Shown piece by piece: positions 10,790 to 20,099 of a DNA stretch of 64,000 nucleotides. The position numbers were made by a program, and so were the translations under genes. Location: the NCBI RefSeq assembly GCF_001651865.1, contig NZ_LPUX01000055.1, forward strand, positions 310,001 to 374,000, in the 5' to 3' direction. The first letter of the stretch is position 1. Each line of letters opens with the position of its first letter. This DNA is from Sinorhizobium glycinis (GTDB lineage Bacteria > Pseudomonadota > Alphaproteobacteria > Rhizobiales > Rhizobiaceae). Under the pieces are notes generated by a model. The model saw nothing but the letters and a program-made list of their open reading frames with translations. It had not been told where the DNA came from and searched no databases.

Positions 10790-11407
10790 ATGTCACAAAT
10801 GCTCGCTCGTGATGCTTTCTACCTGCCGCCAAAGGAATTCACGCACGACTATCTGGCGTCCCTATGCATCGCCTTGGCGCAGATCGATACGGACGCCGTC
10901 CAGGAGGCGATAGAGATGTTGCGTGCCACACGCGATTCAGGCGGCACGGTCTTCATCGCCGGCAACGGTGGGAGCGCGGCAACCGCCTCCCACTGGGTCA
11001 ATGACCTCGGCAAGGCCACGAAACGATCAGGAAGGCAGCCGATCCGTGTCATGGGCCTGACCGACAATGTCTCCTGGATGACGGCGCTCGGCAATGATGA
11101 AGGCTATGATCGCATCTTTGCCGGCCAGATGGAGAATTTCGCCAAGCCCGGGGACCTGCTCATTGTCATTTCGGCAAGCGGGAACTCGCTCAATCTCGTG
11201 CGGGCAGTCGAGCTCGCTCGCGAAAAAAAGGTCGCCAGCATCGGCATGGTCGGTTTTGACGGCGGGAAGCTCAAGAATCTCGTCGATCAGCCGCTATGGG
11301 TGCGGTCCGAAAAGGGTGCCTACGAGCTCGTCGAAGACGTCCACTCGGCGATCTGCCATGCCATCACGCGATACCTTGTCGACGACCGCCCGGAGCCTGG
11401 TCAATGA
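10790..11407 (+). CDS. gmhA: GmhA-like sedoheptulose-7-phosphate isomerase (SIS domain)
   Basis: A 205-residue single SIS-domain protein. It has FIAGNGGSAATASHWVNDL at about residue 55 and ISASGNSLNLVRAVELA around residue 125, the phosphosugar-binding loops of GmhA/DiaA proteins. GmhA converts D-sedoheptulose 7-phosphate to D-glycero-D-manno-heptose 7-phosphate, the first step of the heptose pathways, in the cytoplasm. The length fits GmhA (about 190-200). The stop overlaps the next start as ATGA. The downstream HddC-GmhB fusion and HddA kinase strongly support the heptose role over a DiaA role. An ATG nine bases downstream is an alternative start. Confidence 0.85.
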   Translation: MSQMLARDAFYLPPKEFTHDYLASLCIALAQIDTDAVQEAIEMLRATRDSGGTVFIAGNGGSAATASHWVNDLGKATKRSGRQPIRVMGLTDNVSWMTALGNDEGYDRIFAGQMENFAKPGDLLIVISASGNSLNLVRAVELAREKKVASIGMVGFDGGKLKNLVDQPLWVRSEKGAYELVEDVHSAICHAITRYLVDDRPEPGQ

Positions 11408-12672
11408 CGATTGCCCTACCGAGGTCTCCGCGCGCACAACAGGCATATGTCGAGGGCCGCGCCTACAGCCGGCCGCGACAGGCAGTCATTCTGGCCGGCG
11501 GGCGCGGCACGCGCATGCATCCGCTCACCCTCGATCGGCCAAAACCGATGGTGCCGGTGCTCGGCCGGCCTTTTCTCGAGTATCAGATCGAGCAGCTGCG
11601 GCAGGAGGGTTTCGAGAAGGTCCTGCTGCTCCTCGGCTACCTGCCCGACGTGGTGATGGACCACTTCGGCGACGGCAGCAGGTTCGGCCTCACCATCGAA
11701 TATGCTGTCACCGATCCCGACGATCTTACCAGCAGCCGGGTATCCAATGCCCGTCATCTCATAGATCCGTGCTTCCTGCTGCTGTATTGCGACAATTACT
11801 GGCCCATGCGGATGGAGCGGCTGTGGCAACGCTTCTGCGCGGCCGGCAAGCCTGGAATGATCACGGTCTACAGCAACAAGGACGGCTATTCACGCGGCAG
11901 CGTGATCCTTGATGCGGATGACAATGTGACCGTCTTCGACCGGCTCCGGACGACGCCCGGGTTGCAGGGGGTCGAGATCAGCTACGCCATATTGACCGAC
12001 CTCGCCCTCGAATTCCTGCCCGACGAGGACACGCTGTTCGAGGAGGCGATCTATACGCCGCTCGCCACGCAGCACCGCCTCGCCGGCTTCGTGAGCGAGC
12101 ACCGCTATTACAGCGTGGGCTCGATCGAGCGTCTTCCCGCAACAGCACGCTTCATGAGCCGCGAGAAAACCATCCTGCTGGATCGGGACGGCGTCCTCAA
12201 CCGCAAGCCCCCGCGGGCCCAATATGTGTGTTCACCGGATCAGTGGGAATGGATCCCGGGTTCCAAGCAGGCGCTGGCCCTCCTGAACGACGCCGGCTAC
12301 CGCATAATTGTCATCTCCAACCAGGCGGGGATAGCGCGCGGCGCGATGAGCGCCGCCGACCTCGATGCCGTTCACCAGCACATGTGCGCCGAGGCCGCGG
12401 CCGCCGGCGCCAAGATCACAGCGATCTACCACTGTCCACACGGCTGGGACGAAGGCTGCGACTGCCGCAAGCCCAAACCCGGCATGTTGTACGAGGCGCA
12501 ACGCGACTTTGATCTCGATCTCACGCGCACCCTCTTTGTCGGTGACGACGATCGCGACGGTCAGGCGGCCGAAGCGGCCGACTGCCTCTATGCGCAGGTA
12601 AGCGAGCAGAGCTCGCTTCTGGACCTCACCCGGCAACTCCTATCGACAGCAGGATTGGAGAAAAATGACTGA
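11404..12672 (+). CDS. Bifunctional heptose-1-P guanylyltransferase (HddC-like)/heptose-1,7-bisphosphate phosphatase (GmhB-like)
   Basis: A 422-residue fusion. Residues 25-250 are a nucleotidyltransferase: AVILAGGRGTRMHPLTLDRP is the nucleotide-binding signature and LLYCDNYW contains the metal-binding Asp. Residues 256-420 are a HAD phosphatase of the GmhB type: ILLDRDGVLNRKP (nucleophile and acid Asp), VISNQAGIARG, the Cys/His zinc loop YHCPHGWDEGCDCRKPKPG, and LFVGDDDRDGQAA. GmhB removes the 7-phosphate from heptose 1,7-bisphosphate and HddC makes GDP-heptose from heptose 1-phosphate, so consecutive reactions are joined in one chain. The start overlaps the gmhA stop; an upstream open frame has no plausible N-terminus. 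NDP specificity (GDP rather than ADP or CDP) is inferred from the HddA neighbour. Confidence 0.88.
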   Translation: MTIALPRSPRAQQAYVEGRAYSRPRQAVILAGGRGTRMHPLTLDRPKPMVPVLGRPFLEYQIEQLRQEGFEKVLLLLGYLPDVVMDHFGDGSRFGLTIEYAVTDPDDLTSSRVSNARHLIDPCFLLLYCDNYWPMRMERLWQRFCAAGKPGMITVYSNKDGYSRGSVILDADDNVTVFDRLRTTPGLQGVEISYAILTDLALEFLPDEDTLFEEAIYTPLATQHRLAGFVSEHRYYSVGSIERLPATARFMSREKTILLDRDGVLNRKPPRAQYVCSPDQWEWIPGSKQALALLNDAGYRIIVISNQAGIARGAMSAADLDAVHQHMCAEAAAAGAKITAIYHCPHGWDEGCDCRKPKPGMLYEAQRDFDLDLTRTLFVGDDDRDGQAAEAADCLYAQVSEQSSLLDLTRQLLSTAGLEKND

Positions 12673-19117: not shown

Positions 19118-19130
19118 AGGACCACCAGCC

Positions 19131-20099
19131 ATGGACTACGCTTATCGGCTCGAAGCAAAACGGATATTTGTGGCCGGCCACCGCGGCATGGTCGGCTCGG
19201 CCGTGGTGCGGCGACTGGAGCAGGAAAACTGCGAAATCCTGACGGCCGGGCGCGACGTTCTCGACCTTCGAAGTCAGGACGCCGTGCATCGCTGGATGAC
19301 GGAAACCAGGCCGGACGCCGTGGTTCTCGCGGCCGCTAAGGTCGGCGGGATTCTCGCCAATGATCGGTATCCGGCCGATTTCCTGCTGGACAACTTGCTG
19401 ATCGAAACGAATGTCATTCACAGCGCCTTCCGGTGTGGCGTCGAGAGACTACTGTTCTTGGGCTCATCGTGCATCTATCCGAAGCTGGCGCCACAGCCGA
19501 TCCCGGAAGACGCTCTTCTCACGAGCCCCTTGGAACCCACCAACGAGTGGTACGCTATCGCCAAGATCGCCGGTCTGAAGCTGTGCCAGGCCTATCGGCG
19601 CCAGTATAATGCCGATTATGTTTCGGCAATGCCGTGCAACCTGTACGGTCCGGGCGATAACTTCGACCTGGAAAAAAGTCACGTCGTCCCGGCGCTCATG
19701 CGCCGGACCCACGACGCGAAGATCGAAGGAGAACCTAGCCTCACGATCTGGGGGTCCGGCAGACCGCGACGCGAATTCCTACACGTGGACGATGCCGCCG
19801 ACGCCATTGTCCACATGCTCAAAACATATTCGGCGGATGGTCACCTCAATGTCGGCTCTGGCGAGGATATCTCCATCCGGGACCTCGCAATGCTCATCGC
19901 CGACGTCGTCGGCTTTACGGGCGAGATCGAGGCGGACCTGGCCAAGCCGGACGGGACACCGCGCAAACTGATGGACGTCGGCAAATTGTTCGCAACCGGA
20001 TGGCGACCCAGGCATACGCTTCGTGCAGGCCTGGAACTTACATATGCGTGGTTCAAGGCACATACCGAAGCTGGCGATCTGCGGCTGAGGGCCGTATAG
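19131..20099 (+). CDS. fcl: GDP-L-fucose synthase/GDP-4-keto-6-deoxy-heptose reductase family (Fcl/WcaG)
   Basis: A 322-residue SDR. The N-terminal FVAGHRGMVGSAVVRRL is the GxxGxxG site. The family hallmark LAAAKVGGILANDRYPADF follows, then catalytic SSCIYPKLAPQPI and the WYAIAKIAGLK YxxxK motif. MPCNLYGPGDNFD and the C-terminal DVGKLFATGW blocks match Fcl/WcaG. Classical Fcl epimerises C3 and C5 and reduces C4 of GDP-4-keto-6-deoxymannose. In heptose loci relatives reduce GDP-4-keto-6-deoxy-heptose. A separate 3,5-epimerase upstream suggests a divided-labour pathway. It ends the plus-strand block and converges with the opp operon. Confidence 0.88.
   Translation: MDYAYRLEAKRIFVAGHRGMVGSAVVRRLEQENCEILTAGRDVLDLRSQDAVHRWMTETRPDAVVLAAAKVGGILANDRYPADFLLDNLLIETNVIHSAFRCGVERLLFLGSSCIYPKLAPQPIPEDALLTSPLEPTNEWYAIAKIAGLKLCQAYRRQYNADYVSAMPCNLYGPGDNFDLEKSHVVPALMRRTHDAKIEGEPSLTIWGSGRPRREFLHVDDAADAIVHMLKTYSADGHLNVGSGEDISIRDLAMLIADVVGFTGEIEADLAKPDGTPRKLMDVGKLFATGWRPRHTLRAGLELTYAWFKAHTEAGDLRLRAV

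What the first reader, a model, noticed from the sequence alone, without database searches (positions are those of the whole stretch)
10790..20099. Complete GDP-heptose set next to a 4,6-dehydratase, 3,5-epimerase and reductase: a putative 6-deoxy-heptose pathway in a rhizobium
GmhA, GmhB and HddC domains and HddA give all steps to GDP-D-glycero-alpha-D-manno-heptose. The same strand also carries GMD-type, RmlC-type and Fcl-type enzymes, without manB, manC or rmlABD. This combination parallels the GDP-6-deoxy-heptose routes of Campylobacter and Yersinia rather than GDP-fucose or dTDP-rhamnose synthesis. Modified heptose in a rhizobial Wzx/Wzy polysaccharide would be new to my knowledge.
Basis: partly seen in the sequence, partly recalled or inferred. 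Interest (0 to 1): 0.75.

Follow-up and report, generated by a model that had tools for sequence, protein, structure and literature searches.

The report
Rhizobial heptose pathway to branched sugar
A rhizobial polysaccharide cluster holds a conserved six-gene pathway that appears to make a seven-carbon sugar, oxidise and flip it, and finish it with an unstudied relative of an isoprenoid enzyme that may shrink its ring into a branched sugar of the kind found in streptomycin.

Summary
The heptose genes are real, but the pathway is not the one proposed. GMD (587 bits, cut-off 415) and Fcl (521, cut-off 500) are canonical GDP-fucose enzymes. GMD was found near only 3 of 15 related heptose loci, and ManC with a second gmd-fcl pair lies on another contig. 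In 69 loci found by DRL alone, RmlC is nearby in 67; the other two are contig ends. Supply varies: heptose genes (15), CDP-glucose synthase plus SDR (36), UGD/UXS (7), CDP-glucose 4,6-dehydratase (2). The SDR's closest solved relative is Campylobacter C4-dehydrogenase Cj1427. So: GDP-heptose, C4 oxidation, C3/C5 epimerisation, then DRL. In a Streptomyces-like genus DLO1 (>=54% identity) was found in 4 of 392 genomes, all in streptomycin-type clusters; a published list places it in Coxiella burnetii, which makes dihydrohydroxystreptose. I propose that DLO1 is the ring-contracting reductase; plain C4 reduction is the main rival. Nothing was tested at the bench.

The parts
10790..11407 (+). GmhA-like sedoheptulose-7-phosphate isomerase (SIS_2)
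   Evidence: Pfam SIS_2 1.4e-18; TIGR00441 gmhA 2.1e-32, below its cut-off; a relative lies near DRL in 15 of 69 loci
11404..12672 (+). Fusion: N-terminal HddC-like sugar-1-phosphate nucleotidyltransferase, C-terminal GmhB-like heptose-bisphosphate phosphatase
   Evidence: PF00483 1.3e-19 and HAD/GmhB families; best PDB match is D,D-heptose 1,7-bisphosphate phosphatase 4pnh on the C-terminal part, 5.8e-36; ORF opens at 11296, likely ATG at 11404
12665..13720 (+). SDR, proposed NAD-dependent C4-dehydrogenase of GDP-heptose (Cj1427-like)
   Evidence: Best PDB match 6vo6/6vo8, 4.4e-29 alone and 1.2e-45 by profile, next 2.6e-29; 16 of 16 relatives have SSCxxYG and YxxxK, without the Asp/Glu of 4,6-dehydratases (the dehydratase motif is recalled)
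13754..14836 (+). HddA-like heptose-7-phosphate kinase (GHMP)
   Evidence: NF049969 HddA 2.5e-46, below cut-off
14930..15475 (+). RmlC-like 3,5-epimerase
   Evidence: TIGR01221 174 bits, cut-off 155.75; H63, K73, Y133, D170 kept in 80 of 80 relatives
15523..16860 (+). DRL/DLO1 oxidoreductase (Rossmann, DRL_cat, SAF), proposed ring-contracting reductase of the 4-keto nucleotide sugar
   Evidence: PF21135 5.3e-51; Brucella DXR-II 3upl 5.9e-67 over residues 12-426; tree and residue table; ORF opens at 15409, likely ATG at 15523
16907..17695 (+). PAP2-family membrane phosphatase, perhaps polyprenyl-diphosphate recycling; relative near DRL in 6 of 69 loci
   Evidence: Pfam PAP2 6.8e-6, 26.3 bits, just below gathering score 27.2
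18047..19117 (+). Canonical GDP-mannose 4,6-dehydratase; neighbour, not part of the module
   Evidence: TIGR01472 586.9 bits, cut-off 415
19131..20099 (+). Canonical GDP-L-fucose synthase; neighbour, not part of the module
   Evidence: NF047922 520.7 bits, cut-off 500
869..9225 (-). Polysaccharide assembly genes: GT4 869-2059, Wza-like 2070-3476, putative Wzy 3666-5186 (no Pfam hit), Wzc/Wzz-like 5183-6916, Wzx 6897-8243, WecG/TagA glycosyltransferase 8389-9225
   Evidence: relatives of the same set follow the DRL gene in L031

Best explanation
The six genes at 10790-16860 form a nucleotide-sugar pathway for the polysaccharide built by the neighbouring Wzx/Wzy genes. [quoted passage not shown] The SDR oxidises C4 without losing water, in the manner of Cj1427 (supported by sequence, not assayed). 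The RmlC-like protein epimerises C3/C5 of the 4-keto sugar. The DRL/DLO1 protein finishes the route with NAD(P)H. I propose that it uses DXR-type chemistry: retro-aldol opening of C2-C3, re-closure C4-C2 with ring contraction, and reduction of the extruded C3 aldehyde. The product would be a branched seven-carbon furanose, a heptose counterpart of dihydrohydroxystreptose. The chemistry of this last step is inferred.
For: RmlC lies within 6.5 kb of DRL in 67 of 69 loci. What changes upstream is the supply: heptose set plus SDR (15), RfbF plus SDR (36), RfbF plus UXS/UGD (7), RfbF plus RfbG (2); SDR, UXS and RfbG are all enzymes that oxidise C4. No StrL/RmlD-like reductase was the best match of any ORF within 6.5 kb of DRL; Fcl is there in L028, L033 and L062 (many loci are cut short by contig ends). 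SDR; L-2-hydroxyglutarate oxidase is annotated beside it in 2 Deinococcus plasmids and similar proteins lie in L099, L040 and L143, which fits Cj1427 turning alpha-ketoglutarate into L-2-hydroxyglutarate (PMC10680097, passages). RmlC position 120 is Asn/Gln in 15 of 15 heptose loci and in contig-cut L035, against 1 of the other 64. DRL against Brucella DXR-II: K191, K228, E232, N238, H323, E328, R335 kept in 78 of 78, while the substrate anchors K193 and T229 are hydrophobic in all 78. DLO1 at 54-56% identity was found in 4 of 392 Streptomyces-like genomes, all four within about 20 kb of StrB1-, StrD- and StrM-like genes. The seven genomes with the next best StrB1 homologues (54-70%) show neither StrD/E/L/M nor DLO1 within about 20 kb. 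In G746 strE and strL look internally deleted and the full RfbF+SDR+RmlC+DLO1 set is present. The published DLO1 list includes Coxiella burnetii and Streptomyces griseus (PMC3847144, section 5 part 1), the two producers named in PMC9095892, where the C4 oxidase and ring-contracting enzyme for dihydrohydroxystreptose are said to be unidentified (abstract and passages).
Against: No activity has been shown for any DLO1 protein that I found; four DLO1/DLO2 proteins failed to replace DXR (PMC3847144). A plain C4 reductase would also fit the gene sets. Three of the four streptomycin-type clusters keep the RmlD-like StrL, the enzyme class Cross et al. favour for ring contraction, and the same three show no RfbF, SDR or module RmlC in the stretches read. 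Streptomycin also holds N-methyl-L-glucosamine, so co-occurrence does not single out streptose. G746 has another StrE homologue (69%) elsewhere. LhgO-like genes are rare: 1 of 69 loci, 3 of 4 plasmid loci, 1 of 9 actinobacterial regions. Asn at RmlC 120 also occurs in the hexose enzyme of S. suis (PMC7949155).
Confidence: 0.55

Rival explanations
1. Same pathway, but DRL/DLO1 only reduces the C4 ketone. The product is an unbranched GDP-glycero-heptose with changed stereochemistry at C3, C4 and C5, like the Campylobacter products, with DLO1 as a non-homologous replacement of the SDR-type C4 reductase.
For: The first steps match Campylobacter Cj1427 and Cj1430, where the last enzyme is a C4 reductase (PMC10680097, passages). 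DLO1 relatives include proteins named plain oxidoreductases or homoserine dehydrogenases, and the DXR substrate anchors are lost.
Against: It does not explain why DLO1 is in Coxiella, whose two unusual O-antigen sugars are virenose and ring-contracted DHHS (PMC5843353, passages), or why it marks streptomycin-type clusters. It also needs the relatives with shown activity, the DXR-II isomeroreductases, to be misleading.
Confidence: 0.3
2. One reading: GMD, RmlC and Fcl turn GDP-heptose into a GDP-6-deoxy-heptose.
For: GMD starts about 1.2 kb after the DRL gene on the same strand; GMD is also close by in 3 Mesorhizobium loci.
Against: GMD and Fcl are canonical, GMD was found in only 3 of 15 heptose loci, both have second copies on C45 beside ManC, and the reading leaves SDR and DRL without a role.
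Confidence: 0.05
3. DRL is an alternative DXR of the MEP isoprenoid pathway that happens to lie in a sugar cluster.
For: It is homologous to Brucella DXR-II.
Against: The genome has DXR-I (429.9 bits, cut-off 315.7). Of the genomes behind 30 of the 69 loci, 29 were held and 26 have Dxr (25 above cut-off); the 3 without it carry two further DRL_cat proteins each, and the four of these six put in the tree group apart from the RmlC-linked clade. T229 is replaced in 78 of 78.
Confidence: 0.03
4. The module serves an L-hexose or L-heptose amino sugar, as might be assumed for N-methyl-L-glucosamine in streptomycin producers, with DLO1 as one of its oxidoreductases.
For: Streptomycin contains this sugar as well as streptose (established chemistry, recalled), so DLO1 in streptomycin-type clusters could serve either.
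Against: Three of four such clusters show no RfbF, SDR or module RmlC in the stretches read, though each should need the amino sugar. Aminotransferases were not searched for in the 69 loci.
Confidence: 0.05

Closest known systems
Campylobacter jejuni HS:2 GDP-D-glycero-L-gluco-heptose pathway (Cj1427, Cj1430, Cj1428)
   Same: GDP-heptose made from sedoheptulose 7-phosphate, C4 oxidation by a Cj1427-like SDR, then an RmlC-like epimerase
   Different: A DRL/DLO1 protein instead of a Cj1428-type SDR reductase. HddC and GmhB are fused. The RmlC matches RmlC proper (best 2.1e-41) better than the Campylobacter heptose epimerases (best 4.2e-15).
DXR-II/DRL of Brucella and its DLO1 sister family (Carretero-Paulet 2013, PMC3847144)
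   Same: Alignment over nearly the full length, and 7 polar positions kept in 78 of 78 (whether all lie in the active site was not checked)
   Different: Substrate anchors K193 and T229 replaced; linked to RmlC and sugar-nucleotide genes
dTDP-dihydrostreptose route of streptomycin producers (StrD, StrE, StrM, StrL)
   Same: 4-keto sugar, RmlC-type 3,5-epimerase, then a reductive ring contraction; DLO1 present in all 4 clusters seen
   Different: Hexose and 6-deoxy; no StrL-like best match within 6.5 kb of DRL in the 69 loci
Proposed dihydrohydroxystreptose route of Coxiella burnetii
   Same: A DLO1 protein and an RmlC are published for this organism; the proposed order is C4 oxidation, epimerisation, ring contraction
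   Different: TDP-glucose instead of GDP-heptose; known here from papers only, no sequence compared

Membership tests
GDP-6-deoxy-heptose pathway (DmhA/DdahA/WcbK type) | A GDP-heptose 4,6-dehydratase | tested here: not met
   The only 4,6-dehydratase of the cluster is a canonical GMD: 7kf3 1.4e-157, heptose enzyme 7us5 2.8e-32; TIGR01472 587 bits
GDP-6-deoxy-heptose pathway (DmhA/DdahA/WcbK type) | Dehydratase and reductase conserved with the heptose genes | tested here: not met
   GMD in 3 of 15 heptose loci, Fcl in 2 of these; L032 and L038 are cut about 1 kb downstream
Cj1427-type GDP-heptose C4-dehydrogenase | Closest solved relative is Cj1427 | tested here: met
   that 6vo6/6vo8 are Cj1427 is recalled, the structure paper's title was seen in a reference list
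Cj1427-type GDP-heptose C4-dehydrogenase | SDR catalytic Tyr/Lys without the dehydratase Asp-Glu | tested here: met
   16 of 16 in alignment A1; the dehydratase motif is recalled
Cj1427-type GDP-heptose C4-dehydrogenase | NADH recycled by alpha-ketoglutarate | not testable with these tools
   Only indirect: LhgO near the SDR in some clusters
RmlC 3,5-epimerase family | Family score and catalytic His, Lys, Tyr, Asp | tested here: met
   TIGR01221 174/156; 80 of 80
DXR-II (MEP enzyme) | Thr229 and the phosphonate anchors Lys191 and Lys193 | tested here: not met
   K191 kept, K193 to Leu in 78 of 78, T229 to Ile/Val/Met in 78 of 78
DLO1 (published sister family of DXR-II) | Clade apart from DXR-II; hydrophobic residue at 229 | tested here: met
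   RmlC-linked clade of 79 rows, SH-aLRT 98, includes Desulfosudis oleivorans; that this is the renamed Desulfococcus oleovorans of the published list is recalled; residue 229. The published alignment was not available, and no published DLO1 sequence was in the tree by accession.
Dihydrostreptose/DHHS synthase | Ring contraction of a 4-keto-L-sugar nucleotide | not testable with these tools
   Genome context only
GDP-heptose supply (GmhA, HddA, GmhB, HddC) | Curated NCBIfam scores | tested here: inconclusive
   The functions of the matched families agree, all four below cut-off

The most novel reading that the evidence does not exclude
DLO1 is the missing ring-contracting reductoisomerase of bacterial branched sugars. 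The pair RmlC plus DLO1 takes any 4-keto nucleotide sugar: CDP-glucose oxidised at C4 gives dihydrohydroxystreptose, CDP- or dTDP-4-keto-6-deoxyglucose gives dihydrostreptose, and GDP-4-keto-heptose in rhizobia gives a new branched C7 furanose. Sugars described as unique to one antibiotic producer and one pathogen would then be widespread in surface polysaccharides of Proteobacteria, Bacteroidota, Deinococcota, Actinomycetota and others.
Probability: 0.5. Interest if true: 0.88.

Novelty: new variant of a known kind. Interest (0 to 1): 0.74.

Why it matters
As of Cross et al. 2022 (PMC9095892, abstract and passages) the enzyme that contracts the ring in dihydrohydroxystreptose is unidentified, and finding the two missing Coxiella enzymes is called the key challenge. 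The comparison gives candidates for both (the Cj1427-like SDR and DLO1) in culturable soil bacteria. It also suggests a role for a family described as uncharacterised in 2013 (PMC3847144), and predicts a heptose-derived branched sugar in rhizobial polysaccharide, with possible bearing on plant recognition (speculation).

Tried and rejected
Rejected: 6-deoxy-heptose through GMD and Fcl; DRL as an isoprenoid enzyme; the SDR as a 4,6-dehydratase.

Led nowhere: papers giving locus tags for the S. griseus or Coxiella DLO1 genes; two genus searches that turned out to be small groups of 8 and 6 genomes. Whether the published S. griseus accession lies inside its streptomycin cluster was not verified. 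Structure prediction was not used, because sequence matches to solved structures were strong. No gene neighbourhood was read for Coxiella; its genes are known here from papers only. Search-based absence claims: no paper linking DLO1 or DXR-II relatives to streptose or polysaccharide sugars was listed (12 of 64 papers shown), which cover only open-licence PubMed Central papers.
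Full report
WHAT IS IN THE WINDOW. The window is contig C55, 310001-374000, of a 6.04-Mb genome that is 99.97% complete. The nearest DRL relatives are Mesorhizobium, up to 92% identical, so 'rhizobium' is fair; no name was given. From 10790 to 16860 six genes run on the + strand: GmhA-like, HddC-GmhB fusion, SDR, HddA-like, RmlC and a DRL protein; a PAP2 protein, GMD and Fcl follow. Polysaccharide assembly genes lie on the - strand at 869-9225. RmlC, GMD and Fcl pass their curated cut-offs; GmhA, HddC, GmhB and HddA match below theirs.

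GMD AND FCL ARE A FUCOSE PAIR. GMD scores 586.9 bits against TIGR01472 (cut-off 415) and Fcl 520.7 against NF047922 (cut-off 500). Against solved structures GMD reaches 1.4e-157 with a GDP-mannose dehydratase and 2.8e-32 with a GDP-heptose 4,6-dehydratase. The genome has a second gmd and fcl on contig C45, with ManC (704 bits) and a phosphohexomutase-family protein close to them. Among 15 heptose loci only three, all Mesorhizobium, show GMD within 6.5 kb; two of the other twelve (L032, L038) end about 1 kb after DRL. One non-heptose locus, L062, also has GMD and Fcl, on the other strand.

A CONSERVED MODULE. The genome collection was scanned with the DRL protein alone, so its neighbours were not selected for; 69 loci came back. 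Within 6.5 kb of DRL: RmlC 67 of 69 (the two without, L031 and L075, have DRL at a contig end), SDR 55, RfbF 47, HddA 16, GmhA 15, HddC-GmhB 15, UGD 8, UXS-like 7, GMD 4, Fcl 3, RfbG 2, LhgO 1. The patterns are: 35 RfbF+SDR+RmlC, 1 the same with LhgO (L040), 15 heptose set+SDR+RmlC, 7 RfbF+UXS+UGD+RmlC, 2 RfbF+RfbG+RmlC, 3 SDR+RmlC, 2 RfbF+RmlC, and 4 single cases (L031 none, L035, L074, L075). Several loci are cut by contig ends, so these are lower bounds. RfbF was checked in L052 (TIGR02623, 432 bits, cut-off 300) and RfbG in L082 (TIGR02622, 505 bits, cut-off 278). No ORF within 6.5 kb had the StrL/RmlD-like protein as its best match; Fcl-like reductases occur in L028, L033 and L062. I read 4 of the 110 matching plasmid records (2 Deinococcus, Paracoccus, Gemmobacter); all four show rfbF, SDR, rfbC and the DRL gene. 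The supply thus changes while RmlC plus DRL stays. In the commonest pattern the only C4-oxidising enzyme recognised is the SDR.

THE SDR AS C4-DEHYDROGENASE. Its best solved relative is 6vo6/6vo8: 4.4e-29 alone; with a profile of 16 module SDRs 1.2e-45 against 2.6e-29 for the next. That these entries are Cj1427 is recalled; the title of the structure paper was seen in a reference list. In 16 of 16 sequences the motif is SSCxxYG with YxxxK, so the acid residues of 4,6-dehydratases are absent. Cj1427 oxidises C4 of GDP-heptose and regenerates NAD by reducing alpha-ketoglutarate to L-2-hydroxyglutarate (PMC10680097, passages). An L-2-hydroxyglutarate oxidase gene lies between rfbF and the SDR in both Deinococcus plasmids. 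Similar proteins lie in L099 and L040, below the family cut-off, and in actinobacterial L143 at 50% identity. It was not seen in most clusters, so it is supporting, not defining.

RMLC. H63, K73, Y133 and D170 (1dzr numbering), the catalytic set of this family, are kept in 80 of 80 module proteins. Position 120 is Asn or Gln in 15 of 15 heptose loci and in L035, a contig-cut locus with HddA; of the other 64, 63 have His and L069 has Gln. The Campylobacter heptose epimerases have Asn at what appears to be the same place, but so does the S. suis hexose enzyme (PMC7949155, passages), so this shows a substrate-linked change rather than heptose use.

DRL IS DLO1. The protein aligns with Brucella DXR-II over residues 12-426 at 5.9e-67. 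In a tree of 106 proteins (20 ids were left out as duplicates or fragments) the 79 proteins from module loci form one group (SH-aLRT 98), apart from five extra rhizobial DRL proteins and 22 others (quick search, some long branches flagged). Heptose loci appear in two places of that group, the alphaproteobacterial set and L076+L080, so supply may have been exchanged or transferred more than once. Against Brucella numbering, K191, K228, E232, N238, H323, E328 and R335 are kept in 78 of 78 (fragments L035, L050, L075 and L083 left out), while K193 is Leu in 78 and T229 is Ile 69, Val 6, Met 3. Lys191, Lys193 and Thr229 anchor fosmidomycin in DXR-II, and DLO1 is described as having Leu, Ile or Val at 229 (PMC3847144, section 6). 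So much of the enzyme is kept while the substrate anchor is changed; I did not check which of the other kept residues lie in the active site. The host has DXR-I. Of the genomes behind 30 of the 69 loci, 29 were held and 26 have Dxr, 25 above cut-off. The three without it carry two more DRL_cat proteins each.

WHY RING CONTRACTION. DXR-II rearranges its substrate's carbon chain and reduces it (established enzymology, recalled); a retro-aldol/aldol ring contraction is proposed for the branched sugar apiose, and similar chemistry is suggested for dihydrostreptose (PMC5324594, abstract and passages). The published DLO1 list includes Coxiella burnetii (NP_820815.1 in strain RSA 493) and Streptomyces griseus NBRC 13350 (PMC3847144, section 5 part 1). 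PMC9095892 (abstract and passages) describes streptose and DHHS as unique to these two species, proposes C4 oxidation, epimerisation and ring contraction for DHHS, and says that two of the enzymes are unidentified. It favours an RmlD paralog for the last step; I differ on that point. Whether the Coxiella DLO1 gene lies in the cbu1831-1838 region was not verified, and I fetched no Coxiella sequence.

TEST IN STREPTOMYCETES. In a class-level sample of 394 unnamed actinobacterial genomes, 84 had some match and 10 a match at 51-59% identity. In a genus-level sample of 392 unnamed, Streptomyces-sized genomes, DLO1 at 54-56% identity was found in four: G746, G456, G756, G658; ten others had weaker matches (29-42%), which I did not place in the tree (the tool scored at most four candidates for most genomes). 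All four lie within about 20 kb of genes for an inosamine-phosphate amidinotransferase (1bwd, 3e-215 for the G756 copy; that 1bwd is StrB1 is recalled), an RmlA-type StrD-like protein (446 bits, cut-off 320, G756 copy) and a StrM-like RmlC; three also have full-length StrE- and StrL-like genes. A reverse search with the G756 amidinotransferase found 122 of 392 genomes with a match at 1e-40; the four with at least 75% identity are exactly the four with DLO1. The seven next best (54-70%) show no StrD, StrE, StrL, StrM or DLO1 within about 20 kb. In G746 StrE and StrL are seen only as fragments, as if internally deleted, and next to DLO1 stand the SDR, an RfbF-like protein (293 bits, cut-off 300) and the module-type RmlC. 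This looks like a switch from a 6-deoxy to a 6-hydroxy supply, as a 5'-hydroxystreptomycin producer would need (that such a cluster has a CDP-glucose synthase is recalled, not looked up). The other three show none of the module's supply genes in the stretches read, so those genes seem not to be needed for the N-methyl-L-glucosamine part. Caution: G746 has another StrE homologue (69%) elsewhere, assembly error in the deletions is not excluded, the products of these genomes are unknown, and DLO1 itself could still serve another sugar.

OTHER RESULTS THAT DO NOT FIT NEATLY. Three actinobacterial regions (L139-L141) have the RmlC-DLO1 pair and no RfbF or SDR match within about 10 kb. Seven loci, five of them Thermodesulfobacteriota, have UXS-like and UGD genes and no SDR of this kind. 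Four DLO1/DLO2 proteins failed to replace DXR in E. coli (PMC3847144, passages), which is expected here but shows no activity.

VERDICT. The heptose supply and its modification are supported by homology and conservation; C4 oxidation by the SDR is likely; ring contraction by DLO1 is the best reading at about one in two, with plain C4 reduction behind it. The product in the window would be a GDP-linked branched heptose. All of it is inference from sequence.

Noticed in passing
L010 (contig C45) 12819-19365: A second gmd and fcl, with ManC and a phosphohexomutase-family protein: a GDP-mannose to GDP-fucose set outside the window.
   Followed up: yes
G001, G002, G006 (hosts of L027, L028, L033): Three Mesorhizobium genomes gave no DXR-I match but two extra DRL_cat proteins each, while the window's genome has DXR-I and no DRL_cat protein except the module one: a swap of the isoprenoid enzyme among close relatives.
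   Followed up: partly
L168 4596-5132 and 17443-19415, L169 2-1167 (genome G746): Streptomycin-type cluster with strE and strL seen only as fragments and an RfbF/SDR/RmlC/DLO1 set present: a candidate hydroxystreptomycin-type cluster.
   Followed up: partly
L068, L070, L071, L073, L078, L079, L093: Variant with RfbF, a UDP-glucose-dehydrogenase-like and a UXS-like gene in place of the SDR, which hints at a pentose-derived branched sugar.
   Followed up: no
L139, L140, L141: RmlC-DLO1 pair without visible sugar-nucleotide supply genes nearby.
   Followed up: no
L031 7-11178: Rhodopila contig in which DRL, PAP2, WecG, Wzx, Wzc, Wzy, Wza and GT4 relatives of the window genes run on one strand in this order: the module and its export genes seem to travel together.
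   Followed up: partly
window 9505-10266: LuxR/NarL-type response regulator just upstream of the heptose genes, a possible regulator of the cluster.
   Followed up: no
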